DNA of 64,000 nucleotides from Eudorina sp. 2006-703-Eu-15 (taxonomy: Eukaryota; Chlorophyta; Chlorophyceae; Chlamydomonadales; Volvocaceae): contig BDSI01000075.1 in assembly GCA_003117195.1 (NCBI GenBank), positions 186,001 to 250,000 on the forward strand, read 5' to 3'. Every line of letters starts with the position of its first letter. The first letter of the stretch is position 1. The notes below the pieces were generated by a model. That model saw nothing but the letters and a program-made list of their open reading frames with translations, searched no databases and was not told where the DNA came from. This document shows, in pieces, positions 3,496 to 23,297 of the stretch. Made by a program: the position numbers and the translations under genes.

Positions 3496-5775
3496 GCTTG
3501 TTCGGCTGCGACACGAATGGCACCGTGGTCGGCAATGTGTTCGGCGCCGTTGATAGCAGTAATGTTAGGAGAGCAGACGAGAGCGGGAAGGCTGTTGGAC
3601 GGCAGGCAGGGGCGCTGCGCTAAGAGACACAACTGGCGGTTAAGGGGATAGTCACTTGCGTACAGGGGAAACCCATGCCGCGCTCGGACTCCTTAGGGCT
3701 GGAGCAGGCATTGCTTGGGCGGTGGGACCATGAACTTCTGAGCCTAAAGCGGAAGATGGTTGAGGTCCACGAGCGTGGAGCGGTTCCTGTTTACTGCGGC
3801 TGGGATAAGACAACGCCGGGGTCGGATCGTTGGAACATTTGAGGTCAAGGTGAAGTTTGCAGAGTGAACGATGACGTGACGACGGCAACGGCGGTTTGTT
3901 GTCAAACCGTTGCAACGGTCTAACGATGGCATCTGTCCACTGAAGAACCGACCGCGGTCAAAGTGACCGACCTGCTCAATCCGCAAATCCACATCCAGGC
4001 AGGGACGGGTGCTATGCACCCTCAAAAAGTACAGGCCGAATGTGGATGAGACCCGCATGCAAAACGAACCCTCTCAAAAAATGGGTGCCAGCTTGCGTTT
4101 GCCTTCCTTTCGACTCTCCTGGTATGCACACCCCCACCACCACGTAAATAATATATGCAACAAGGAAATTCGTAGGCAAAAACCTCATTCCAGTGGCCCA
4201 AGAGCGGTGTTGTATTTGTATGTCTATGCGGTCGCTTAACTTTTGGGCAGCTGCAACACGCGCTTGCAAGCCCAAGCCGCAAACGGCGACGTGAAAGACG
4301 AGCTCGAGTTCCCAAGACCCCACCAAGGCACGAAAGATAATGCCCACCAAGCATGCGTGCGTGCCCACCCGCGAAACGTCCCGACCCGCCTCCACATAAC
4401 CGCAACCGGGGTCGAACCACGACCCCGAGGGTACTTCCCAAAGGGTATAATAAGCAAATACAATTGCCGGCCAGCAAGCCACTGCTGCCGCGCTCTGGCG
4501 CCGACACAGGTTTAGGGCTACACGTCTCAAGCTGGATCAGTGAAGCGCGCAAGCTTTTTGGTCATCTCACCGCACTCAACTCGACAGCCCTGTCAACCCG
4601 GCCCGACGTCCGCCCCATGGCCGTCATGTCAGAACGTCATGCTTAAGCCGACGACTGAATCAGGCCCACAATGCTATCACTGGCCGCCCGGGCCACCCGG
4701 ACAGACCAAATACCGGTGTTCTGCAGAGACTCCAGAGGCCCAACGGGACGACAATTAACAGTGCAAGGCCGAACAGGGGTGACGAATCCCAAACCGGCGG
4801 CCCTTCAGCCCACATAAAATTCTCCTTCCCCCTTCAACATCTCTCATCTCCTTCACCCGCCTCCCACACTCCGTGCTGCAGGCAAAGTCCAGAACTCCAC
4901 ATCCACCAGTCTCCTCAGTCCAACAGCCGCGCCTGGCTTCTGCAAACCCACTTCCACTGGAACCCCGCCTTCCCTTGCGACGCCCCAACACAAATACGGG
5001 GCCTCCGTCGCCCCCTAGCTGTGGCAACATGGGCGCGTCCAGCGCCGTGCTCGCCCTGCCACCCGTGCAGCATACCGGTATCTCCAGTTCCAACCCGTAA
5101 GCGGGATATGCATACAATGAACTGTAAGTGCCTGAAGCTTTTCTCTTGTCAAGACGACAGCAAACAATATGAAGCCCTATACAACGGAGCGCGGGGACAA
5201 TTGCTCAGTGCCGCATTTTATCCCAATACCGATTAACGAAAATAGTAGGTAGTAGGTATAAATCCTGGTCCTCGCAACCAAACCACAAAACAATGCTTAT
5301 GATTAGGAATGAACAGTGCTTTACGAGCAGCATGCTATGCAGGCGGCAGCCCCACAAAAAGGCAAGCACTTCGCAAATATCCAGGGTGGCAACGGCAGAG
5401 AGCTAGGGACGGCACCCGGTGCATCCATCCAACCGTGTCGCATGAACGAATGCCAACGGCGCCTGCCCTCAGAAATGTACAAGGATGTACGGAAAGCCCT
5501 TGCCCGCACGTTTTTCTGCATGGCACCGTGGGACGGTATGGCCCCTCCGCCCTGGCGCTGAATCCCTTACCGTGCTGACATTCACCCCAGCTACTGCTGC
5601 GTCAGTACACGAGCTACAGATCTCCACAGCGCATACGAGAGAATATGCGCATACAAGATAATATGAGACCTGCAATGTTCAAGCAATGCCTGGGCTTCTG
5701 CGCCAAGTCCGACTGACGGAAAGGCTGTAAATGCAGAACACGTCCGAGCCCACCCTCTGGAGCGGCCCGAGCTCC
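3496..5775. other. Spacer between WD40 gene and bZIP gene
   Basis: This is the 3' side of both flanking genes (they converge). It holds the tRNA-derived SINE-like unit listed separately (about 4400-4490). A pyrimidine-rich stretch ending in CTGCAG at about 4820-4880, followed by an open frame to about 5099 and a TGTAA motif near 5122, looks like a splice acceptor plus terminal exon on the plus strand. I could not link it to any upstream exon. No other coding signal is convincing. Confidence 0.4.
4400..4490 (-). mobile_element. tRNA-derived SINE-like unit with A-box and B-box
   Basis: On the minus strand, 4418-4408 reads GGTTCGACCCC, a perfect RNA polymerase III B-box. Positions 4481-4471 read TGGCTTGCTGG, close to an A-box, 52 bases upstream of it. 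The flanks do not fold into an intact tRNA: the T-stem fails after three pairs. This is what a decayed tRNA-derived SINE looks like, and such elements are known in Chlamydomonas. Target duplications were not found, so the outer borders are unknown. It could instead be a tRNA pseudogene. Confidence 0.35.
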
Positions 5776-7062: not shown

Positions 7063-8729
7063 GAAAGGCAGATATCCTGCAGGCGGTCAACGGCGTCCTC
7101 CAGAGAGCTTCAGCACATGAATGTTGTCAAACAGGTAGGGGTTTGCTCACAAAACGTAACATCAACAGTCGTACAATGTATTATTAAAAATTAGCAAAGG
7201 TAATAATTTACGTGACACGCAGCTGATGCCGTAAATGTCGTGGAACGAAGGATGACTGTACCCTTGTTGTCATCATGCTTGCATTACATTATTCTATAGA
7301 GCAGCTGCCAAGTCGCATGGTCCATATATATTGCCGCACTCAGCTTTCTGTGTCAGCATGCGTTTACGGCAGAAGGTACATTTTTGACGTCAGGTCTGCC
7401 TTCATAAGCAACAAATTTAAAGGTACGAATGAGTTCAACCTAAGTACTGAATTCGTAAAATCTGACGGGAGCCTCTGAGACACACCCTTCGATCGTAGTA
7501 ATAATCTGTACATTGCTGGATGGAACTGAGCTGGGACACACGGCCTACGGTCAAGGGCATTCTTATCCATACCGATGTACTCATCCTAATTGCATGTGTG
7601 GCGTGCTGATCCTAATCCAGTCAGCTGTTTGCCGTTTGCCATCCACATCCCGAGGGGCGGGGTCCTAATCCTATAACCGAAGGCAAAGGGTGACGACCGT
7701 ACGTCCCGAAATTGTTGGGCATGGGCGGCCGCGACCAGCGGGGTACGCGCTAGTTTTCGTGTATCATTCTCCGCCTCTCCTAACCCGGCCCGGGAAGGAC
7801 CCTTCCATAATGCATCGGAGCTCAGCTAACCCCGCCGGCGAAGCCCGCACGTCCCCCTCGCTCCCATCACACCGGCTTTCACAGGTTCGATGCCCCGGCG
7901 CACATGTGACACCGCCCGTCTTCTCAATCCTAAACCCGGGTTGCTATCCCTATCCTGAGTTACACCTCCCGAGGCTCTTATCCTTATCCTAACCCCCCCC
8001 CTTATCCTTATCCTAATCTCTATTTTTCCCTGACCAGTACCCGGGCCCAATCTCTAATCCTTGCAACCCTCCACAAAGACGCGCTTGCCAGCGCTTGCAC
8101 GTCTGAATGGTCCGAAGAAAAAGGTTGTTAGGACAGTGCCGGCATGTTAAGACACAGCGCAGACCCAGTCCATGACTGCAGTCAGTTTTTTGATTGCATC
8201 TCCGATAACTCTTCACTAGGCGCCGTTTCCATTGCGCGACGGCCCGCCCCGACACCGCGACACGCCCATGAAGGAATGCGTACCCCTCCTGTACCGGCCG
8301 TAGGTTGGGTGCAGCGATACCATCCGACAGTCATTGTTGTTGGGGGCCTTGTTTCGTGGATAACCGGGTATGGTGCTGTCCTTCGTCAGTTGCTTCTTCA
8401 GAGCTAGGGTCTCCAAGTGTGATGACTTCAACAAGGAATTCGGGTTAAATATCTCAGTTGTGACCTTGAACCTAGAAGTCGTGTTGGCTGAACAACAGTA
8501 CAACGGAGGGCGATACGTCGCGGAATCCCAATATAATCAAGCCCATTAGCCATTGTCCAATGTAATGCCTCGATAACTTCTTGCAGCATAAGTGACCTAG
8601 AACTTAGTTACTAAAGATTCTTTTACCGTACGGCTGGAACGTTGGACTGTGTATGAGCACTGAGGTCTTTGGCAACAGTATCAACCCAACTGATAAGCGT
8701 TTTAGGATTCAGGTATTGCAGATTCCACC
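7063..8729. other. Divergent spacer between bZIP and VTC1
   Basis: Both neighbouring genes start from this 1.67-kb gap, so it must hold both promoters. The bZIP side (7100-7600) is AT-rich. The middle is a degenerate array of CCTAATCC/CTTATCC-like units, densest at 7975-8022. No long open frame looks coding. Confidence 0.5.
7975..8022. repeat. Minisatellite of CTTATCCTTATCCTAA units
   Basis: Two copies of CTTATCCTTATCCTAA flank a run of nine or more C. Weaker copies of CCTAATCC occur at about 7606 and 7662. The unit differs from the usual green-algal telomere repeats (TTTTAGGG and TTTAGGG), so this is not read as an interstitial telomere. Confidence 0.5.
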
Positions 8730-9607
8730 ATGCCGACAGTACTGAACAACACAAATGGCAAGATGGCCACCAGCTACATATTCGACAAGCTCTATGGTAC
8801 CAAGCAGTTTACCGCAGGTGCTGAGCTGCAGCTTCCACGCAAGGTTCCTATGCGCGTGGAGCCCAAGTCTTACTTTGGTAAGTTTGGCTATTTCTTTTTG
8901 CAACGACGGCTGGCGTGTTTTTTTATAAGATGAGCATTTATTTCATTTGCGGTGCGCAGCTAATGAACGGACGTACTTGAGCTGGATGGGCATGGCCATC
9001 ACGTTAGGAGGCGTGTCGTCGGCGCTGGTGGGGTTCTCCGGAAACGGGGACGATGACTCCACCGACCGCTTGATATCAAAGAGGACTATTGATGTTGTAA
9101 CGTGCATCTATTCGCCGTTGGCTATCCTTATTATGTGTTACGCCCTCTTTACGTACGAGTGGCGGAGCAAGTTCATGCGGACGAAACAGGTAATGCCGTG
9201 GGAGCGCGTTGGGTCACTGCTTACACATTGGAAGACGGAATAGAATTTGGGCAGGCCTATGCGAAGATGGGCTGAGGGGTTACAGGGCACCCGGTGGTTG
9301 ATTCACAAGGTACGGAGCCACTGTACCCTATCGCGTTCCTTTCATCGGACAGCGCTCGCCCAGCAGTCTGACCGCCCGGCACCTTAGCACGGTAGTCATT
9401 ATGAGTAACCGTTACAAGGTGGACCTTTAGTCCCGCCCGGGCGTTCTAACGGGCCCGTAGGCGCCTCATCTCGTTCATTATGCTCTCCACTGCGCCCTCC
9501 AGATTGGTTTCTTCGACGATAAGATTGGGCCCATCACCGTGGCGGGGCTGGTACTCATGACTCTACTGGTGATCTTCACCGTCGCGCTGGTTGACTACCT
9601 TTTCTGA
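8730..9607 (+). CDS. VTC1: VTC1, small membrane subunit of the vacuolar transporter chaperone complex
   Basis: Exons 8730-8877, 8960-9189 and 9503-9607 give 160 residues. The family signature VEPKSYFANERTYLSW (DUF202/VTC1) is formed across the first intron, which splits a GCT codon. Three membrane segments follow: MAITLGGVSSALVGF, a second around SPLAILIMCYALFTY, and a C-terminal one ending LVIFTVALVDYLF. VTC complexes make polyphosphate and move it into acidocalcisomes or vacuoles; VTC1 is the membrane subunit without the catalytic tunnel domain. Chlamydomonas VTC1 is known to be needed for polyphosphate storage and sulfur-starvation acclimation. The start is supported by CACC before the ATG and by the typical short N-terminus. 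Length is as expected, with an extended loop (GNGDDDSTDR) between helices 1 and 2. Confidence 0.92.
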
Positions 9608-10714: not shown

Positions 10715-13700
10715 TTACAATTTCCCCAGCAGCTCCAGAAGCCTGACCGCCTGCTCGTCCAGCTTGGCCCGCAGCTCCTCGTTGGGCGCTTCCCGCACCC
10801 AGCGCCGCACCGTGGCCGCGACCCGGCGGCGCAGCAGCCCGAAGTGCCGCGACACGATGTCCTCCGTGCCCGGTGGCGGGTGAAGCAGCATATCCACCAT
10901 GGCGTGCCGCATCACCAGCAGCTGCAGAAAGCATGTAAAGGAAGGACAGGGATAGGGGCTCTCGTAAAGCAAGTTGCTCCAGGGGAGCCAGCGAACATGA
11001 TGCCGCTGGGGCCGTGAGCGTACGTCTTGCGAGAGGGCGTTTGTGGCGCTCTGCACCATGGTGATTGCGTTACCGCCAGCGCATCACGGTGGTTGGCACG
11101 CACCTGCAGCCGTGAGTTGTACTCGGCCGTCTTAGCTGTTCCCTCAGACGTGCCGGCCATGGTCTCGGAGAGCGGCTCGTTCGTCATGGGGTCGGTGACC
11201 AGAATCTGGCTCTGGATAGACACAAGTACCTGCGGGAAGATACCAACAGGCGAGGGGACTTTTAACCCGCCTGTCAGCGTGCCAGGAGCACCTCCCGGCT
11301 GCGATCCCCCCCCCAGTTGCGCAGCCAATGTTGACGGCCGCCTGATGCCTCGCGTCTTGGCCTCACCTGGTAGATGGAGCTCAGCGCCGGGTTCCACTTC
11401 TCGCTGGTGTGGCCCGAATTGTACGTGCCCAGCAGCGACAGGCAGACCTGCGCGTCACACCGCCGCCGCGAACCCGCAAGCGGCCGCAATTTAAGGGGTG
11501 CATTTACCGCATGTACAGTCAGGGCCGTGCAAATTGGCGGCGAGGTTGCCTATCCGACACCGCTGCAAAGTGTCTAGGGAGGCCCGAAACGGTGAAATTC
11601 GGGCCTCCCTATTGTGTGCACTATGCCTGATCAGCCAAGCACAGCAAGCGACGTGGGTAGGCCGAGGCATGGGACGCAGTAACCGGTTCCATCGCACATG
11701 ACCCAAGTAACAATTTCACGCCAAGTGATGGTCCCAAACCCCCAAGCACACCCGCCCGTCGCAGCACCTTGCCGTCGGCGTACAGGTTGGGGTTGTATCG
11801 CGCCTTGCCGCCTCCCGTGTTGTAGACCATCATGACGGGCGGGTCGTTGGGGTAGCCGGCGGGGCAGAAGATGTCGAACACGAAGAGGCCGCCCTCGTAA
11901 GGGGTGCCCTGCACAGAACCAGCGGTCCAGCGCGCCTCTTTCCTTCCTTCAGCCACCAACAGCAGGCGCTTGAAAGCAGCCACCGCTGCCCGTGTACGCA
12001 TCCTACATTGCGTCCCGTTTCCCGCTGTTGTGGATACGACCAGCACAGCGTATGACTACGAACGACCACATCATCCGTGCCTCGCTGGTTTGCCTTCCGA
12101 CGTGCACTCGACTCCTGCTCAAAATAACAATGGGTCGCCCGCCCAACCCAACGTGCCAGCGCCGCACCTCAGGTCCCGTTATGACCGCGCGCATCTTGTC
12201 GATCCGGGCGCTGTCCTGGCGCAGGAAGATGGCGGCGGCGGCCAGGCAGGGCAGCGCCAGCCGGCCGCCCGGCTGCATGTCGTTGACCTCCTTGGCCAGC
12301 TGCCGCATCTTCTTGCGGGAGGCCCCCGAGTCCTGGTCCGCCAGGCGCGCCATCTACCGGGGCAGAGGACGGAGGGGCCGCGAGGTTATAGGAACTTGGT
12401 AGACATATTGAAGCTGAGGTGCGGGACGGGGGCAGCGGCCTACTCAGAAACCTAGTAGCGTCACACGGCCCGGGTATCCCGCACGCCCCCCCCCGCTAAA
12501 TTGCCGCTGAGATCCCTCAAGTAAGGAACGGCTCCGGCCATTCAGTTAACATAAGAGGCTGTGACGTTAACATAAGAGGCTGTGACGTAAGGCGGAGCCC
12601 CGCAAGTGTGCGACCCGTCATGCGCCCACAAGGCAGTGAAGGGCACCTACCGGTACTGTTAAGAGGAGGAGCCCGCCTACCTTAGTGTTGCGTTTGCAAT
12701 TGGAGCTACCCTTCAGCCAGCACCCACCTCCTTGAAAAATCCTCCTGGCACGGTGCTGTCGTACTCCCCGATGGACAACGGCCCCAGCTCCGCCGTGTAC
12801 AGCTTGTCCACATCTGCAGGTGATGTCTCGGGCACGGGCAGCTGCACCGCCTCGCAGGCCAGAGCGGAGGGCCGGGACGGCTCTGTATCCATGGGCTCCA
12901 CGCCTAAACCGGTATGGTAGGAAGAGCACGCAGGGCAGTCAGCTCGGACGCGGGCAGGCTCAGGCGTTTGTGGCTCGGGCTGTGCGGCATACCGGACCGA
13001 TGTTTTACCAGACCGGTGCAAGATACGGGCGGCAGTCGCTGGTCTGAACACTAGCAAACCAGGACGCACAGAAAGTCGCCGAGCCCGGCCGACGTGGCAT
13101 ACGCACGCCATGCCCCCAGGCCCTGCGAGGCCACAGGACCACAACGCGCGGTCAATTATGAGCGGACCCCGGTTGGCTGGGCACAAACGCACCAGAGCCC
13201 TCCCCGCTCTTGCGCCGCTTGAGAGGCGGCTGCGAGTCCGCACCCGGCGATGACTCCCCAGCGGCAGCGGCGGCGGCAGCAGTTGCGGCGGCGGTTGCTG
13301 GCGGCGGCGCGAAGCGGCCCTCGCCCGGCCCGGCGGCGCGGCCCCTCAGCTCCGCCGCGCGGGCCAGGAACTGCCGCAGCCGGGTTTCCAGCAGCGCCTG
13401 ATGGTGGGTCTCCAGGTGCTGCAGCGCCCGGGCCATGATCTGCGTACCGCACATACATAGGGTGCCAGCATTGCCAATAAACGTCACTGGATGAACGAGG
13501 GCTCGAGGAGTCACGGCAAGCGGACAGGGTTTTCCATATCGCCATGGCTGTTCCTCCGACACGCCAGTCCATGGTGTCAGCCGTGACCGGATCGAACACA
13601 CAGCGCACCAGGCGGCCCCCCCCGATTGCGCCACCCCTCGCAGATCGGGATTGCGGTACTACAGGCTATCCAGTCACATGTGAGACGCTGGGCTAGGCGG

Positions 13701-16700
13701 CCTGGTCTGGTCTTTGCGCTGCTCTCGGGGACGCGCACCTCGTCGCTGTAGTCCGGCTCCGAAACCACCGCCTGTACGAAGCGGTCGTGGCGGCCCAGCT
13801 GCAGCTGCACCGACAGTACGGCGCCCACCAGAACCGGCAGGTCGAAGCCGTACTGCTCCGGCTTGGCCACCTGTGGACATAGGTTACCAGAAAGCAGATC
13901 CAGGGCATGATTTAAGCTGACGAAGGCGCACCCAAGCAGTCGATAATCGCCGCGTGCTCAGTCCACCCACTCCTGCAGCCAAGGCACACCCGGACCTGCA
14001 ACCCGCCATCCCCGCCTATCTCGTTCTACTGGCCGCAGCTCCCCATTGGCCTACCCAGCTACCTGCAGCTTCTTGCACGCATCCCCCAGCAGCAGCTCCA
14101 GGGAGGACACTACCAGGAAGGCCGTCTTGCCCAGCAGCGGCTCGTGCAGGAAGGCAGCGGCGATGAGGGGGTCGGCTGCGTGTTCGAACAGCACAGGGAA
14201 CGATTACCACGGGGCGAAAAGTGACGAGGCTCACAGGGGAGCGACGGCCGACAAAGAACCAGACATGCCGGCATAATCCTGGCTTTAAGCCGAGGGCACG
14301 GGCACGAAAGGTATCGGAAGACCCACAACCGCCCCATGACCCTTCCTTGAGTCGGCTGTGTAACCATCCATTTCAGGTGCCGATAAACCCGGCACAGGCC
14401 GCCCCGTCAACTCACCCGTGAGGGTGTTGAGCCACTTGAGATTGTTGATGCCCATGCTGAGGAAGCCCACGGCGGCGCGCTGCTGGCCGCGGTAAAAGTC
14501 CTCCTTGCGCTGCCGCTCCTCCGGCGGCAGAGCCGCCCAGGCGGCCGCGTTGGCCTTGGAGCGCTCGATGGCGTAAATGTCCGCCAGCCGGTCCAGACCG
14601 TCCTACAGCAGGTGAGGGGTTACAGGGCGGGGAGGTGCAGTGGTTAGTCACCGCCGCTTCCCAAGCCAGTTCCACACCACACCACACCGCACCGCACCTT
14701 GAAGTAGTGCATGACGGTGTTGACGATGCCCGAGGCGTAGTCGGAGAACAGTTCCGACTCGCCGGTAGCCGCAGACCCGGAGCTGGCGGCCGTGCTGCTG
14801 GCGCCGTCGGCGGTCGGCCGGCCGTCCGCCGGGGCGTTGGCAGCGGCCAGGTCAGTGAGACAGCGCTTGAGTACCGAGTCCTTGATCAGCTCCTCCAGAA
14901 TCTTGTCTGCGGGGCAGAGTACGGCGCAGAGGGGTTGAGGACTTGGGCTGTGAGACTCCGCGACCGGTTCGAAGGCCGTTGCTGCTGCAGGAAGACGTCA
15001 AGAGGGCCGAACGACTTTGCCCCGGCCTGCATCGCTGCGCTGTCGTACGGATGCAGACTTCCCGGATCAATGATCCTGAGTTGTACCTCGCTGCTTGTAA
15101 CTCCTCGATCCATCCAGTCGCCCAACCCCAAGCGCATCCCACACGACACGCACCAATGTGGTACCGCATGCCGTACTTGTCGTACGAGTCCTTGTCCACG
15201 TCCAGCCCCACCACGAGCTCGGCGTTGACGTGCGCGCGCAGCAGCGCCGGTATCAGGTCGCGCTGCGTTACGGGGGTGCCGAGCACCGCGCCCACCAGCG
15301 CGCGCTCGCCCGTGCTCATGCGGTCGGGGGCAAGCGCCAGACCGCGCGCCTCGCGGACCTGCGCGCAGCTCGGACAGCAGGCAGGGGGGCCAGTGTGCTC
15401 TGGATCGAGGGATGGCGGTGCGGAGCTCACTGGGCAGCGGAACCCCCCTAGCAAGCTTTGCAGGGCCGCGCCCGTTGGGCAGCAGAAATGCGCCGTCATA
15501 CCTGCACGTTCTGCAGCTGGCTTGCTAACATGGCAAGCAGCAGGTTGACGATCTTGTTCTGGAGCATGGCGCTGCGGACCACGTCGTTGGCGTTCAGCAG
15601 GGTCACCTGCGAGGGGAGGGAGCACCGGCCGGACGCGCAGTGGCAGCGGCGGGTGCGGGAGTGAGGGCCGGTGAGGGGCCGGTGTCGAGTCATGCGCAGT
15701 GAGTGAGCGCAACCCTTGACGGGGGATAGGAAACGTAGCTCTCTGCTGCCGCCAGATGGTTCACAAAGCCCCTGCCAGCGCAGCCTGTCAGCTGCCGCCG
15801 CGACCCACTACATGCTCCTCCAATGCCACATAACAAATGTCGTTGCGGGCCCGGGGCCCATCCGCAGGCCTGACCGCAACATGCGACCCCGCCCTCACGC
15901 CCCGTCCCCCAGCCGCCCCGACCCACAATGGCCCGCATGATGACCATGATGGGCTTGGAGGCCACCAGGTCCGCCCGCCCCGCGTACAGCACCGCCGTCA
16001 GCCAGTCCAGCGAGTCGCCCAGCGCGTACTCGGGCACCAGCTGCATCACCGCGGCGGCGTTGCCCGCCCCGCCCCGGGACAGCCAGGCCATCCAGTCCAA
16101 CTGGGGCCGTACGGGGACCAGAGGTATGGGGAACGAGGGCTTAGTCACTTTGTGTGGCAGGGTTTGAGGACGCGTTCCGGTAAGTGCGGGTGGAGAGGTG
16201 ATGAATGCACGTCAGCGGCCCAGGTAGGCAGGCAATAGGGAGGGAGTCCGAATTCGTTCGCGTAGCCCACGGGGGTAACGAGCGAGGCGCCCATGTTGGG
16301 CGTGGGTGTGAAGCGCGGGTGCGGTCATCAGGGGCTTGGGTGCGCTGCGGCACTCAGACCAAAGACCGATACGCCAGCGCAGCAGCATACTCTGTAGTCC
16401 CATCCGATTTCCGCTTCTGCAAAGACGCACACTCGTACAAGAGCCCCCAAGACCGTAGCCACATCCCAGCGCTCCCAATCATCTCCATATTTAACCCCTT
16501 ACCTCCAGGACCGCGAACGCCGTCAGGTTGTCCGCAAGCAGCGGCTCGTTCAGGTGTGATTCGCAGCAATCGTCGTACAGCCGCATCTCCGTGGCCAGCG
16601 GGTTGGCCCATGGGTCGCGGCCGCTGCGGACCTCGGAGGGGTCAAGGCCGTCGGCGCCGTCGCCATCGGCGCTCGCCGCCGCCCCCATCTCCATCTGGTA

Positions 16701-19700
16701 GCGCTGCCGGAAGCGGTGCAGAATGGCGCGCCGCCTAGGGGCCGAAGACAGGATTGGAACGAGCCCGGGTTCGCATAGCCGCATGCCCGAGCAAACACAA
16801 TATGATTTTTTAGTTGCATACAATACGTCAATACCCTTACAAGCCCCACCTACCCCATCCCAAGCCTGCGCATTTCGTTGGGCCCCACTTCCTAGGGCAA
16901 GTCTTGCGTCCACTTCCACGCAGGTACTGTCCTCCAACACCAATGATGACAGGAAAACAGTAGTTGGTGACGGCCATCCAGCGTTAACACTCAGCAGCTC
17001 TGGAGCCGCCCCAGCATCCTCCCGTCTGCCCGCAGCCTGACACGCCGGGGATGTTGCGGCCACACTGCCGACGCCCATACTTCGCAACACTGGTTCATAA
17101 TACTTGGCAAATGCCTTTGGAGGGTCACGAATTGATCGAGATGGGATCATCCATTTCGCCCCAGACCCCGTTGGTCCTCGTCCTCACCGGAAGATGCTGG
17201 GGATAGGGCCCACGTGCATCATGAGCTGTGTGAGGAAGAAGACGTCCGCCATGAAGCTGGGGGCGCCCTCGCCACCCACCGTATCACCCTGCGGGCACCA
17301 CCGAGGTTTGGGGATGGGGCGCCAAGGCAGCCTCACCAGGTGTAGCAGGTCAACTGCAAAGAAGACGAGAAGGCGAGTACGCGCTGAATGTGGCAGCAGA
17401 CGCGCAACACTGGCGTCCCAACGAGGAGGACAACGGAGTGGTCCATGAGCAATGCACGCCACACCAGACGCCGCCACCTGGATCTCAACAGCGCGCCGTG
17501 GCCTATCATGGCTGTGGCGGCGAGCCATGGGGCTCCTTCGTCCTTCCTGTCCCGATATAGGGGACACGGGTGGTGAGGGGCTTGTCCCGCCCGGCTCATA
17601 TCCTCATACCCGGCTCACCGGGGCCAGCAGCGGCGGCGCCGTGGTAGGCGGGTCATCGTCCGGCGTGCAGCCGCCGGCGCCCCGGGCGCCCGTGGCGTTG
17701 TACACCCCCGATAGGTCGCCCAGCCGGTGCCGCTGCGTGCGGTAGTAATCGGGGCGGAGGTGCTTGTCGAACAAGTCCGCGAAGCGGGGCAGCGGCGGCG
17801 CCGCACCGCCCCCGGCGGCCGCGGCCGCTGCGGCCGCCGCTAACGGGTCCGCGCCGCTGCGGTAGAGGTCCAGCCAGCCATTGACGAAGGGCATCGCCAG
17901 ACGCAGGCAGCCGCCCGTGACGTTAAGCAGGAAGCCGTCACTGCCGCCTGCCGGGCGGTGCGGGTGGGTGGGGAGATGCAGGGAGCAGCGGCAGTTTGGT
18001 GAGGCAGGTGAGCAGAAGCTGCTCCAACGGAAATGGACATGAGGACGTCGAACACGACTCGGTATCGGACGGTGTCAAGAGCATGGACGAGAGCACCGAC
18101 GCAGCGTCGTTACTCAGTCACACCGCTTCATCCAGGCCCCTAGCCAGCCATACAACCGAATACACTCAAGGAATTACTCCCGGCTTTGCGGATGCGGCAA
18201 CACGACCTTTAGAAACCTTCAGAAATTCGTCCCCCAGTATACGTCCTTGCTAATCTACATAGTGAACGCACGTCTTCCAAACGTACTCATGCAGGGCACT
18301 CCATATGCGTGTAGCCAAACCTACCCCTCCCAACCCAACCCAAACCCAGTAAACCCATCCCTGGTGCTCCTTTTACGCAATGCTGTCCGATCGTCGTTTC
18401 AGTTTTGAGCCCCACGCCATGACGGCAACTACCTGCCAGGAAGTCCGCCACGTCCTGCTGGTTGCGCATCTCCTGCGTCTCGCCGAACGCCCGTCGGACC
18501 ACGTTGACGCGCCCCACCGTCGACACCCAGCTCAGCAGCGCCTCGCGGCTCAGGCCGCCGTCCTGCGCTCGTTGTGCGGAAGGGAGCAACGGAACAAGCA
18601 TCAGCACAAGAGGAGAAGTGGAACGGGGGTATGCAAACACAGCAGCGACCCGAGGCTGCACAGCGGAGCGGCACCCGTCAAATCACATCCACGTCGCGTC
18701 ACATCCTTGCTGCTAGACCTACACAGTGGGGTGCCTCGAGATCAAACACGGTCCTCAGCTGATTCGCGTCGCACGCGGTCTCGCGGTGACGTCCAGTTTG
18801 CAGGTCCGTGCTGATGCACAAGACGGATTTGCCTGCTTGTCCATCAGGACAGCGACACCGCCAAACGTCATCTAACCAGCGATTGTTGTCGCACATTCTC
18901 CCCTCCCCACCAATCCTCACCTGGCAAGCCCACCACGCCCTTTTCCTATGTGTGTGCGTCCGCCTGGTTCCAGTTGTCCGGAACCGCCCCAACTCGTCCC
19001 CTTGTTCGGGCCCCCCCCTTTTCCCAGCCCCGCTGCCTCACCTTGGTCCTGCTGAGACGCAGCATCAGGTGTCCTGTGCCGTCCTGTGGTAGCATACGGG
19101 TGCGGCGCGGGGTGAGGTGACATCGGCATCGCGCGTGTGTCGCCAGGAAACGCGCCACGTGCGCGGCACGTCCCCGCTTCAAGGCCTTGCCATTACGCGG
19201 GCTGCCGGACACATCAGACGCGTTCAGACACCGGTCCTCGCCGCCCCATCACCGCCCCGTCACCGCCCCGTTTTTCCCCGGCCGCCCGCTCTGTGATCTT
19301 ATCGCAAGCATCGAATTACACCACCTCACGCTCGCCCACCTGCACCCTGGCCATCATGCCCTGCAGCACGGTACGGCATGTCTGGCCGGCGGAGTAGTTC
19401 TTGGGGTAGCCGCGGGTCTCCACGAAAGCCTGCCGGGCGGGACTGGTCACCTTGTAGAAGTGCAGCGCGTCCTGCGGCACCGGGACACGCGGCGGACGGA
19501 CATGGGAAAGGGGTAGGGGTAGGCTTAGGCAAACTGCCGGTGTGGTGGATCGGCCGCAGGAGCAGGCCACCGGAGGGGCGGGACGGATGAACGAGTGAGT
19601 GCAGTTCGTGGAAGTCCTCATCCTGGTCGCACGAAAAGGCCCAGTGGGCGCTAAGGGTGTCGCTTCATCTGGCAGGCGGGAAACGTGGCGGGAGCAGCGG

Positions 19701-22700
19701 TAAGGCGGGTCGGGTCGCAGGCAGCGCCCACCTGCGCGTTGGGCATGGGGCTGGCCCCCAGCAGCGGTATCAGCACGCAGGACTGCTCTAGCGCCTTCGC
19801 CGCCTGGCCGGGACGCGCGCGGACCGCCGCCTCGACGTCATCCAGCAGCAGCGACGCCTGCAAGGGGTGAACGGCACACGCGGATGAACAAGCAGTAAGT
19901 TCACTGCAAACAAATGCCCGACGGATCGGGCCAGCGTGCCAGGAAGCTGATTACCCTGACGGCGCACAGCCGCGGAACTCAGCCTCGGGTGTAGGGCCCT
20001 TCTCGTATGGTGGACACGCACGCCAAAACCCGGCTTGTGGTCAACATGATCTAAAACCCATTTCAGAACCACAAGGCCAACTGACACACATGGGAGGTAA
20101 ATCGAGAAACAATCACAGAACGATCCTGGGACAACTTTGCAGGGTTGTCAAACACGCTCCAGCACCGGGCACGTGCTGGCCCCGGGGCACCCACTCACGA
20201 GGCACTGCTGCAGGCGCTGCGTGCTTGTGATGCGATCCAGCACCACCAGCGGCCGCTCAAAGCCCCCCGCGTCCGTCAGCTTGGCGGCCGGCGCGAACGC
20301 GGACCGGATGCTGTCCTTCAGCAGCCGCCGCCACACGCGCGCGTCGCGATCGGTGGCGGAGGCGTCCAGCATGGTGTCCAGGAAGGGGTCGCACATGGTG
20401 CCGGTGCCACCAGCCTTGGCGCCGGGAACGGGTTGACAGGCACGGGCGGGTACAGGGTTTCGGGCATAGACTGAATAAGCTCCCGGGTCAGTGGGATCTG
20501 ACACGGGATGTGGGTTGCTGCGCTGCCTAACAACTGCTCTGCATGGGCTGAGCTGAGTAGCATGAAACGTGAACAATATTCCCCCCCCCACATCGTCCCC
20601 GTGGTCGCGAGTGTGGACAGGACTGACACGGCCGCCCACCGCACACCTTCCAGCCATGCCGATTTTCGGCATCTACGCCGCGTTTGAACCGATGCCCAAG
20701 CCCTTTTCCCCTAGAGGAATACCTGAGGCGGCTACCACAGCCTCGCACACGCTCACCAGTGCATTCACGAACGCCGTCGTCTGCGCGCCCGTGTCGAAGT
20801 ACAGGTCCGCCCCGTCGTCCCGCAGCAGCGCCATCGTCTCGCGGCACAGCACCCCCGAGAACATCTCGACGGCGTCCGCCACGCCGCCGGCGCCGCTGCC
20901 ACTGGCGGGCAGCGACGCGGCTGCCGGCAGCGCGTCGTGGGCGCGATGGAGGGCCTGAGAAATGGGTGTACACGCGAGCGACGGGACGGCCGTGCGTGGG
21001 CTGACAACGAAACTGACATGGACGAATTCTACACGTCACGGGGGCGCCCAGTCAAGGCGAATCGTTTGGAATCCAACTCACAGAGAATGTCCTGATTCCC
21101 AGTCCCGGGCTTTACATTGGCAACGGCTGGCTGTGCAACGGGCAGTCGACAACAAAGCTCAACATTCCCCATCATCTAGGGTTTACGCGTGATTCAGTGT
21201 TCAGAAGTCTTGTTCTTCTTGTACATTCTTCGCAACGCCGGCTTTCCCCTGGCAATGGAGTTAGGAAACAGCAGACGCTATATCCAAATGCCGCCGCGGG
21301 ATAACGCCCACATCTTATGCCTGCATGTGACCATCGCCTTCATCCAGCACACCGCCCCCGCGCCCGCCCACCTGCAGCCGGTCCTTGGGTGCCACCTTCC
21401 GCTGCAGCAGCGCTGAGCTGATCACGCCCTTGAGCGTCTCCGCATTTAACTCTCGCGCGCCACTGCAAGGGCAGAATCGCACGCGGCGCGTTGAAGGCTG
21501 GTCGGACGATAGGCAATCGGCGCGAGGGGATTTGAATTTGGGGCTTTCCTGTACACGAGCTGCAAATCGTTCCGCATCCCGTCCGATCCATGGATGGTTT
21601 TTAAGGGCGGCAAGAGGCAAACACATCCGCCCTCACTTTGCGGCCGTCCCCGCAGCCACAACGCTGACAACAAATTCAGGGAGAAACCTGCAAACCCACA
21701 TCCCTGATTCAAGCCCTCTCGCCTCGCCACCCAGTTACCTACCCGCCTGCAGCCGTGGTCTTTAGGAAGAGCGTTCCCGCGCCCAGGGCCGCGGTGTCGG
21801 CCACCAGCTTCACCTGCCGCACCAGGGGGCCGTAGGCGATGCCTTCAATATCTCTCCGCGAACCAACACAGTAAACATCGACAGGCACATCCAAGGCACC
21901 ATGTGCAAAACGCCAGGAGAGCCATCCACCGCCCTTTTCAAGACAGCCATGCCTGACCGCAGGAACTGCGTTCCTTGCGGTGTCCGTCAGTCGAAAAGTC
22001 AAAGCTCTCCGAAACCATTCCACTGCACTACTTTGGAAGTTGGTAAGCCAACCTGAAGAGCTGATGCCAGGTGGCCAAGGACGGCTTGAAGCTGCTCCTG
22101 ACCCGCAAGCGTCACGCTGCTGGCATTGAAGGCGCCCGGCGCCTTCGCCGCGGTGTACCACGCCTGCAGTTTGCCCGCCCAACCGGGAAGCGGGCCAACA
22201 GGCAGTGGTGCGCCGGTGCGCGCCGCCGCCGCACGGCTAGCACCAACGGTCGCGACAGTGCCCTGCGCCGCACCAGCCGCTTGGCCCAGCTGCGCGCCGC
22301 CCAGCGCGGCGGCCAGGGCGTTCGCAAGGGCTGCTGCAGGGGCCTGCCCTTGCTGCTGTTGGGGCTGCTGCTGGGGTTGCTGTTGGGTTTGCGGCTGAGG
22401 TTGCCCAGGGGGAGCGGCGTGGCCTGCTAAGAACTGCTGCAAGAGCGACGCCAGCAAGTCAGCCTGTTGGGGCGGCGCGGCGGCTGCCGGGGCCGCCGCT
22501 GGCTGTGGAGCTACCAGAGGCGCAGGGGCCGGCGGCGGATGCTGAGGCGGCTGTGCCGCCTGGGCCGCTGCGGGGGGGAGTAGGCAAAGGAGTTCGTATT
22601 GTATTTGCAATTAGGTGCGGGGATTTCGGCGCAAGGTCGATCGCAAAGACAGGCGTGACCGGTGGACGAGTACGTCAGTTGGCGGCAGGACTTGTACGAG

Positions 22701-23297
22701 GGCCTAGCTGTCGCGGTAACCGGGTTGTGGGTTACAAACATTTGGCCAACTTCTTCCATGGGGCGAACAACCCCACCGCCCGCACACACCCTGCAGGCCC
22801 TGAGATAGCAGTGCGGCCAAGTCTGTAAATCCTTGGGCCATTGCCGGTGGCGGTGCGGGGACCGGTGTCGGTGCTGGTGCTCCAGCTCCAGCGGACGTTT
22901 GGGCTGGAGGTGGTGGTACGGCGCCAGAACCGCCCAGGTCCGCCGCAGTTGTCTCCTGCACCAATATGGAACCATGGGTACAATGGACTAACCAGCATGA
23001 AACTGGACACCCGTTAAGGTTTTCCAAAGTGCCAAAGCCACCTCGGGCATCCCCAGAAATGTCTCGAAAAGGCGAACGCGCCCTTTCACAGCAGGCAATG
23101 TGCGACTCAGGCGTGCATCAGTCGATTTTGATTAAATAATTATCATCGCATCGACGATGGGGAAACCTCACGCGCTCCTGGTCCCTAAAATGGACAGATC
23201 GATGGCGACATACAGTCACCTGAAGTGAAAGAGCCAATGCTAGCTGCAGCTGCATATCTTCATCCATAAAGTCTCCATCCTGTGCCGGGGGATCCAT
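10715..23297 (-). CDS. Ufd2/UBE4-type E4 core fused to a BRUCE-type E2 (UBC) domain
   Basis: A 27-exon model keeps phase from ATG 23297 to TAA 10715 (about 1,579 residues): 23220-23297, 22790-22955, about 22016-22567, about 21743-21842, 21372-21462, 20757-20954, 20199-20414, 19732-19857, 19340-19471, 18433-18562, 17619-17947, 17188-17288, 16503-16734, 15927-16100, 15502-15606, 15154-15358, 14698-14906, 14416-14602, 14063-14175, 13739-13870, 13193-13439, 12728-12903, 12168-12353, 11768-11908, 11367-11447, 11104-11229, 10715-10921. In order: UIM-like DEDMQLQLALALSLQ (13-26), Gln/Ala/Pro-rich region (30-230), Ufd2 core (about 550-1230; SYDKYGMRYHIG, KPEQYGFDLPVL), basic PPLKRRKS, then UBC (about 1345-1579) with YNPNLYADGKVCLSLLGT, catalytic Cys near 1444, and EKWNP. 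No U-box is found. Exon 3/4 borders are the least certain. Alternative: two genes, splitting between 13152 and 12892. A ubiquitin-chain-extending role is inferred. Confidence 0.8.
12545..12586. repeat. 21-bp tandem duplication in an intron
   Basis: The unit GTTAACATAAGAGGCTGTGAC is present twice head to tail, in the intron between exons 22 and 23 of the E4-E2 gene. It adds no coding sequence. Confidence 0.7.

What the first reader, a model, noticed from the sequence alone, without database searches (positions are those of the whole stretch)
10715..23297. E4 ubiquitin-chain elongation core fused to a BRUCE-type E2 in place of the U-box
Seen: exons for a Ufd2 core (SYDKYGMRYHIG, KPEQYGFDLPVL, VSEPDYSDE) continue in phase into exons for a UBC domain with YNPNLYADGKVCLSLLGT and EKWNP. 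Known: Ufd2/UBE4 proteins end in a U-box that recruits an E2. Here the E2 itself occupies that place. Inference: a self-contained E4-E2 enzyme that would need no external E2 for chain extension. I know of no described enzyme with this order.
Basis: partly seen in the sequence, partly recalled or inferred. Interest (0 to 1): 0.88.

Follow-up and report, generated by a model that had tools for sequence, protein, structure and literature searches.

The report
Ancient Ufd2-core enzyme with built-in E2
A volvocine green alga carries a gene for an enzyme that joins the body of a ubiquitin-chain-extending factor to its own ubiquitin-conjugating enzyme, and the same little-studied combination turns up in corals, snails, lancelets, a sponge, a chytrid fungus and many single-celled eukaryotes, which suggests a very old and overlooked branch of the ubiquitin system.

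Summary
A 28-exon gene on the minus strand (23297..10715) encodes 1571 aa: a weak UIM-like motif, a Ufd2/UBE4 core (residues 476-1208), an NLS-like linker, then a BIRC6/BRUCE-type UBC domain (1373-1501) with its catalytic cysteine (Cys1436). No U-box was found. A relative's predicted structure matches yeast Ufd2 up to residue 879, about where the U-box begins, and then the BIRC6 UBC. It is not an algal oddity: of 200 listed relatives, 107 carry both domains (green algae, haptophytes, pelagophytes, a chytrid, sponge, corals, anemones, brachiopod, annelid, gastropods, chiton, lancelets; many unnamed). Seven bear transcript-assembly labels. Trees of the two domains both gather the fusions (98/97 for the core; 94/94 for the UBC, with two further proteins inside), and the same alga's ordinary U-box Ufd2, on another contig, groups with yeast Ufd2. 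So this is most simply one ancient fusion, a paralog beside canonical Ufd2. Most rows of the animal cluster add an EF-hand-like loop and a membrane helix. None of the papers that ten searches listed was seen to describe the architecture; one paper lists the Chlamydomonas gene as 'Ubc21'. Catalysis and 'needs no external E2' remain inference.

The parts
23220..23297 (-). exon 1: start codon and UIM-like motif (residues 12-27 reach into exon 2)
   Evidence: Pfam UIM 15.8 bits, below the cut-off of 21
22790..22955 (-). exon 2, low-complexity N-terminal region
   Evidence: GT-AG, phase fits
22053..22567 (-). exon 3, Gln/Pro/Ala-rich region
21743..21813 (-). exon 4 (start corrected from relatives)
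   Evidence: aligns to Volvox P0001
21372..21462 (-). exon 5
20757..20954 (-). exon 6, approach to the Ufd2 core
20199..20414 (-). exon 7, approach to the Ufd2 core (residues 374-445)
19732..19857 (-). exon 8, Ufd2 core begins (Pfam match from residue 476)
19340..19471 (-). exon 9, Ufd2 core
   Evidence: matches DGAGHLMLRLSRVK of Volvox
18433..18562 (-). exon 11, Ufd2 core
17619..17947 (-). exon 12, Ufd2 core (SDGFLLN)
17188..17288 (-). exon 13, Ufd2 core
16503..16734 (-). exon 14, Ufd2 core
15927..16100 (-). exon 15, Ufd2 core
15502..15606 (-). exon 16, Ufd2 core
15154..15358 (-). exon 17, Ufd2 core (GLDVDKDSYDKYGMR)
14698..14906 (-). exon 18, Ufd2 core
14416..14602 (-). exon 19, Ufd2 core
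   Evidence: the own-genome Pfam match C75:200408-200611 is window 14408..14611
14063..14175 (-). exon 20, Ufd2 core
13739..13870 (-). exon 21, Ufd2 core (KPEQYGFDLPVL, VSEPDYSDE)
13193..13439 (-). exon 22, end of the Ufd2 core, Ala-rich linker and NLS-like PPLKRRKS
12904..13192 (-). junction intron between Ufd2-core and UBC parts, 289 bases, no TGTAA
12728..12903 (-). exon 23, helix region before the UBC domain
12168..12353 (-). exon 24, start of the UBC domain
11768..11908 (-). exon 25, UBC domain (YNPNLYADGK)
11367..11447 (-). exon 26, UBC domain with catalytic Cys1436 (VCLSLLGT) and EKWNP
11104..11229 (-). exon 27, UBC domain
10715..10921 (-). exon 28, C-terminal helices and stop codon (TTGTAA holds a TGTAA)

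Best explanation
The gene encodes a member of an ancient, little-studied eukaryotic enzyme family: a Ufd2/UBE4 scaffold that lacks the U-box and carries its own BIRC6-type E2. Most likely the UBC domain is charged by E1 at Cys1436 and the tethered Ufd2 body brings ubiquitylated clients to it, so that the protein acts as an E2/E3 (E4-like) chimera in the manner of BIRC6 and UBE2O. In green algae an N-terminal UIM-like motif may help to hold ubiquitylated substrate; in some animal and protist members a VCP-binding-like motif may link it to p97/Cdc48. Shown here: architecture, single gene model, conserved active-site residues, predicted folds, common origin of the fusions, coexistence with a U-box Ufd2. 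Inferred: catalysis, substrate holding, independence of other E2s, p97 link.
Against: No biochemistry and no transcript from this species. The window protein has no VBM-like motif (its sequence), and its UIM match is below Pfam's cut-off. The chain-binding loops of yeast Ufd2 (residues 51-55 and 105-110, PMC5303827) lie before the region matched by the profile (from 112), so chain recognition as in yeast is not supported. The UBC set is not closed and its support is just under the tool's star: P0176 (itself with a weak Ufd2 core) and the cryptophyte P0085 (no Ufd2 core found) lie inside, so the label needs 3 changes and 0 of 200 bootstrap trees have the labelled fusions alone on one side; in the quicker tree P0085 fell outside. 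Deep forks of the core tree are weak (56/86) and long branches meet. Canonical Ufd2 is represented by two rows only.
Confidence: 0.8

Rival explanations
1. The Ufd2 part is only a substrate/p97 scaffold and the protein is an ordinary E2/E3 chimera of the BIRC6/UBE2O kind that ubiquitylates unmodified clients; it is no chain-extending E4.
For: The E2 is BIRC6-type; the yeast chain-binding loops are outside the matched region (PMC5303827 passages).
Against: UIM-like matches at the N-terminus in 6 of 7 green-algal proteins given to Pfam, all below cut-off; the core is matched along nearly its full Pfam length in the window and in relatives such as P0126, P0011 and P0014.
Confidence: 0.4
2. Two adjacent genes (a truncated Ufd2 and a BRUCE-like E2) were joined on paper by a coincidence of splice phase.
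For: No RNA from this species; without splicing the Ufd2 part would stop at 13152; an ATG lies near 12891; the Gonium model P0016 lacks the UBC.
Against: 107 of 200 listed relatives, from algae to animals, have both parts in one protein, 7 of the 107 labelled TRINITY, i.e. transcript assemblies; normal intron length and no TGTAA; alignment continuous across the junction.
Confidence: 0.02
3. The UBC arm is catalytically dead and only mimics an E2.
For: The canonical HPN histidine (recalled) is replaced: the motif reads NPN, as in BIRC6 itself.
Against: Catalytic Cys in 104 of 107 relatives; NPN shared with BIRC6, whose UBC appears in listed trapped complexes with E1 and ubiquitin (titles).
Confidence: 0.05

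Closest known systems
Ufd2 / UBE4 (U-box E4 ligases)
   Same: Ufd2 core by sequence and, in a relative, by predicted fold; a VBM-like motif in the first 420 residues of 17 of 98 relatives that begin with Met.
   Different: No U-box; an E2 sits there instead. In the core tree it is a paralog apart from yeast Ufd2 and from the same alga's U-box Ufd2.
BIRC6 (BRUCE/Apollon)
   Same: BIRC6-type UBC with its flanking helices at the C-terminus, catalytic Cys, NPN motif.
   Different: No BIR domain found; the scaffold is a Ufd2 core; 1571 aa against chains of about 4860-4900.
UBE2O
   Different: No other Pfam domain shared was found; the UBC scores lower against UBE2O than against BIRC6 (with P0146 and the A2 profile).
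Chlamydomonas reinhardtii Cre12.g510300 ('Ubc21')
   Same: P0005 (CHLRE_12g510300v5), 74.6% identical.
   Different: Listed in PMC7838096 as an E2 with PF00179; the Ufd2 part is not mentioned in the passages read.

Membership tests
Ufd2/UBE4 E4 family | Ufd2P core | tested here: met
Ufd2/UBE4 E4 family | C-terminal U-box | tested here: not met
   no PF04564 in the full protein nor on contig C75 among 30 genome matches
Ufd2/UBE4 E4 family | p97/Cdc48 binding | not testable with these tools
   needs an experiment; VBM-like motif in 17 of 98 relatives scanned, not in the window protein
Ufd2/UBE4 E4 family | ubiquitin-chain extension or branching | not testable with these tools
   needs enzyme assay
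BIRC6/UBE2O-type E2/E3 chimeras | C-terminal BIRC6-type UBC with catalytic Cys in a large scaffold protein | tested here: met
BIRC6/UBE2O-type E2/E3 chimeras | BIR domain or other scaffold domain of those families | tested here: not met
   Pfam on the full 1571 aa finds only Ufd2P_core, UQ_con and a weak UIM
BIRC6/UBE2O-type E2/E3 chimeras | substrate ubiquitylation without a separate E3 | not testable with these tools
   needs enzyme assay

The most novel reading that the evidence does not exclude
A third, very old (perhaps near the eukaryote root) family of E2/E3 chimeras: a self-sufficient 'E4 with its own E2' working with p97. In animals it would be anchored in a secretory-pathway membrane, probably the ER, by a signal peptide, a lumenal EF-hand-like segment and a membrane helix, coupling lumenal calcium to ubiquitin-chain building on the cytosolic side in ER protein quality control. 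No vertebrate or land plant was seen in the two capped hit lists, so it may have been lost there.
Probability: 0.35. Interest if true: 0.92.

Novelty: new variant of a known kind. Interest (0 to 1): 0.78.

Why it matters
E4 factors are known as helpers that recruit an E2 through a U-box. A conserved line in which the E2 is built in would be a natural test of whether a U-box is needed at all for E4 work, and would add to the short list of E2/E3 chimeras (a review passage names BIRC6 and UBE2O as two, PMC10903993). Relatives occur in tractable organisms (Chlamydomonas, Volvox, Nematostella, Branchiostoma), so the questions are directly testable.

Tried and rejected
Tried without result: viral carriers of the fusion (viral contigs, 81 stretches matched a pattern, none a relative by tblastn). 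A search with the Volvox carteri Ufd2 core gave 13 hits, the query and 12 relatives, no protein with a U-box, so the core tree holds only two canonical rows, yeast and this genome. The own-genome search with P0005 for a second fusion copy did not complete. VIA-align covers both domains but says nothing on their mutual placement; no coordinates were in the Python box to compare with the Ufd2/Ubc4-Ub complexes. The bacterial promoter/terminator scan at the junction (one terminator-like site, 0.2 expected) is not informative for an alga. No Rfam family or tRNA in the window. Absence from vertebrates and land plants is only absence from two capped lists (120 of 159 and 120 of 243 shown), not a test.

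Considered and rejected: gene-model chimera (see rivals); algal contamination in animal data (animal rows form their own clade, 100/93 in the UBC tree and 100/100 in the core tree, and many sit on contigs of tens of megabases); closer kinship of the UBC to UBE2O or UBE2Z than to BIRC6 (BIRC6 scores higher with P0146 and the A2 profile).

Weak spots: UIM matches are under Pfam's cut-off in the green algae. EF-hand matches in four animal proteins scanned one by one are under the cut-offs too (best 25.1 bits against 30; EF-hand_1 in 4 of 35 at E up to 0.1), although the loop pattern occurs in 17 of 26 animal-cluster rows that begin with Met against 0.1 from shuffles. Signal peptides were judged by eye, membrane helices by a hydropathy window. 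My first count of the catalytic Cys (104 of 104 rows) was circular, as rows were cut out by a pattern containing the Cys; it is replaced.

Papers: ten counted searches, of which 21 asked for the Chlamydomonas gene number and 64 for Ufd2 mechanism; lists (8 of 43; 10 of 20) were capped. Passages seen: PMC6548493, PMC11354881, PMC7838096, PMC2408969, PMC5389986, PMC5303827, PMC10903993; all other papers as listings only. No passage or listing describes a Ufd2-core/UBC fusion. PMC6548493 notes a snail (Biomphalaria) ufd-2 model with only a Ufd2P core and puts the missing U-box down to annotation; I did not test whether it is a fusion. Subscription journals and preprints are not held, and domain databases already show both domains on these proteins.

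Full report
WHAT IS THERE. The quoted peptides lie on the minus strand in the stated order. Splicing by hand first gave 21 exons (20414..10715) in one open frame of 1184 aa, all GT-AG; relatives then corrected exon 4 and added a 42-base exon, giving 28 exons and 1571 aa without an internal stop. Pfam on the full protein finds Ufd2P_core at 476-1208 (192.9 bits), UQ_con at 1373-1501 (79.9 bits) and a sub-threshold UIM at 12-27, nothing else up to E 1. The Ufd2-to-UBC junction is an ordinary 289-base intron (median 280) without a TGTAA; the stop codon overlaps one at 10719. That TGTAA is the volvocine poly(A) signal is recalled.

ONE PROTEIN. Proteins of Volvox africanus, Pleodorina starrii, V. 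carteri, V. reticuliferus and C. reinhardtii align with the model at 82.1, 83.6, 84.6, 82.2 and 74.6% identity, across the junction. Two protein searches listed 120 of 159 and 120 of 243 hits, 200 different proteins in all; by the precomputed Pfam column 107 of 200 have both domains and none a U-box. P0176 is a further candidate: hmmscan finds a weak Ufd2 core (22.4 bits, cut-off 20.4) and an N-terminal ubiquitin-like domain. Seven of the 107 bear TRINITY labels, i.e. assembled transcripts (P0047, P0050, P0147, P0154, P0168, P0170, P0173). The label Hpha (P0173) I take, from memory, for a diplonemid; higher group names are likewise recalled. Apart from the sponge ('E4 A-like') the named animal records are called uncharacterized, hypothetical or unnamed.

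WHERE THE E2 SITS. A profile of 35 fusions (A2) matches yeast Ufd2 (9khs_A) from residue 112 to 876 (E 4.8e-69) and BIRC6 with the part behind it (E 5.5e-127). The AlphaFold2 model of the partial Astrephomene relative (73% identical over the searched region; pLDDT 85.6, pTM 0.87) matches Ufd2 195-879 over residues 1-810 and the BIRC6 UBC module over 872-1134. The Ufd2 similarity thus ends about where yeast's U-box begins (its position is recalled). The catalytic Cys is present in 104 of 107 relatives, the other three having aberrant or truncated C-termini, and in 48 of 49 and 35 of 35 rows of two alignments made without selecting for it.

A PARALOG, NOT A REPLACEMENT. The window lies in a 181-Mb assembly (G000, contig C75). 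The same Pfam search lists three more Ufd2-core exons, on C24:604670-608378, and a U-box follows at C24:610130-610303; the reading frames there look like a normal Ufd2 C-terminus with U-box. In C. reinhardtii a published table likewise lists Cre09.g398350 as Ufd2 (PF10408) and Cre12.g510300, the closest C. reinhardtii protein to ours here, as Ubc21 (PF00179); the Discussion calls both up-regulated under high lead (PMC7838096, passages). Core tree (40 of the 107 relatives plus the window): yeast Ufd2 and this genome's U-box Ufd2 group together against all 41 fusion rows (98/97); deep forks among the fusions are weak and some long branches meet. UBC tree (41 of 107 plus the window, against 24 of 92 UBC-only proteins and human BIRC6): all 42 fusions fall in one set of 44 with 94/94 support; the other two are P0176 and the cryptophyte P0085, in which no Ufd2 core was found. 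Because of these two the tool counts 3 label changes and 0 of 200 bootstrap trees with the labelled fusions alone; in the quicker tree P0085 stood outside. The same 14 green-algal rows and the same 11 animal rows form clades in both trees (98/94 and 99/99; 100/93 and 100/100). The simplest account is one ancient fusion inherited mostly vertically, with losses; transfers are not excluded.

N-TERMINI DIFFER BY LINEAGE. Of 7 green-algal proteins given to Pfam (one the window's N-terminus) 6 have a UIM-type match at the N-terminus, all below cut-off. In the animal cluster (27 rows: P0046 and P0121-P0146, 11 without an organism name) 20 of 27 have a hydrophobic helix after residue 25; of the 26 that begin with Met, 17 have an EF-hand-like loop in the first 200 residues (in 16 of them such a helix follows it) and 12 a VCP-binding-like motif in the first 420; shuffles give 0.1 and 0.05 rows. 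Among 72 other fusions that begin with Met, 0 have the EF loop and 5 the VBM-like motif (shuffles: mean 0.5, at most 4). The consensus EhRRRRLxhh for VBM is from PMC5389986; my pattern was looser. This suggests that animal members are secretory-pathway membrane enzymes with the catalytic part in the cytosol, some possibly tied to p97. The window protein shows none of these.

MECHANISM. Shown: anatomy, conserved catalytic residues, predicted folds, ancestry. Inferred: E1 charges Cys1436; the Ufd2 body, with UIM or p97 partner, presents ubiquitylated clients; ubiquitin passes directly from the tethered UBC, as in the E2/E3 chimeras BIRC6 and UBE2O (PMC10903993, passage). The loops by which yeast Ufd2 holds K29 chains (PMC5303827, passages) are not within the matched region, so chain preference cannot be read from the sequence.

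VERDICT. New variant of a known kind (E2/E3 chimeras), with an unusually broad and old distribution for something that none of the papers listed or read in passages was seen to describe.

Noticed in passing
8706..9243 (+): Neighbouring gene pieces, joined by hand, encode a short DUF202 protein (E 1.6e-12) that resembles VTC1 of the polyphosphate polymerase complex (resemblance recalled).
   Followed up: partly
relatives P0046, P0121-P0146 (animal cluster): An EF-hand-like loop (17 of 26), a hydrophobic helix (20 of 27) and a VCP-binding-like motif (12 of 26) precede the Ufd2 core: a possible ER-anchored, calcium-linked E4-E2.
   Followed up: partly
relative P0176: Carries an N-terminal ubiquitin-like (Rad60-SLD) domain before a weak Ufd2 core and the UBC domain.
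   Followed up: partly
relative P0170: UIM matches lie at the C-terminus, after the UBC domain (1457-1471 and 1500-1515), instead of the N-terminus.
   Followed up: no
relative P0064 (Crassostrea virginica): A record named origin recognition complex subunit 1 bears a UBC domain as well; may be a gene-model fusion.
   Followed up: no
G000:C24:604670-610303: Ufd2-core exons followed by a U-box in the same genome: the canonical Ufd2.
   Followed up: yes
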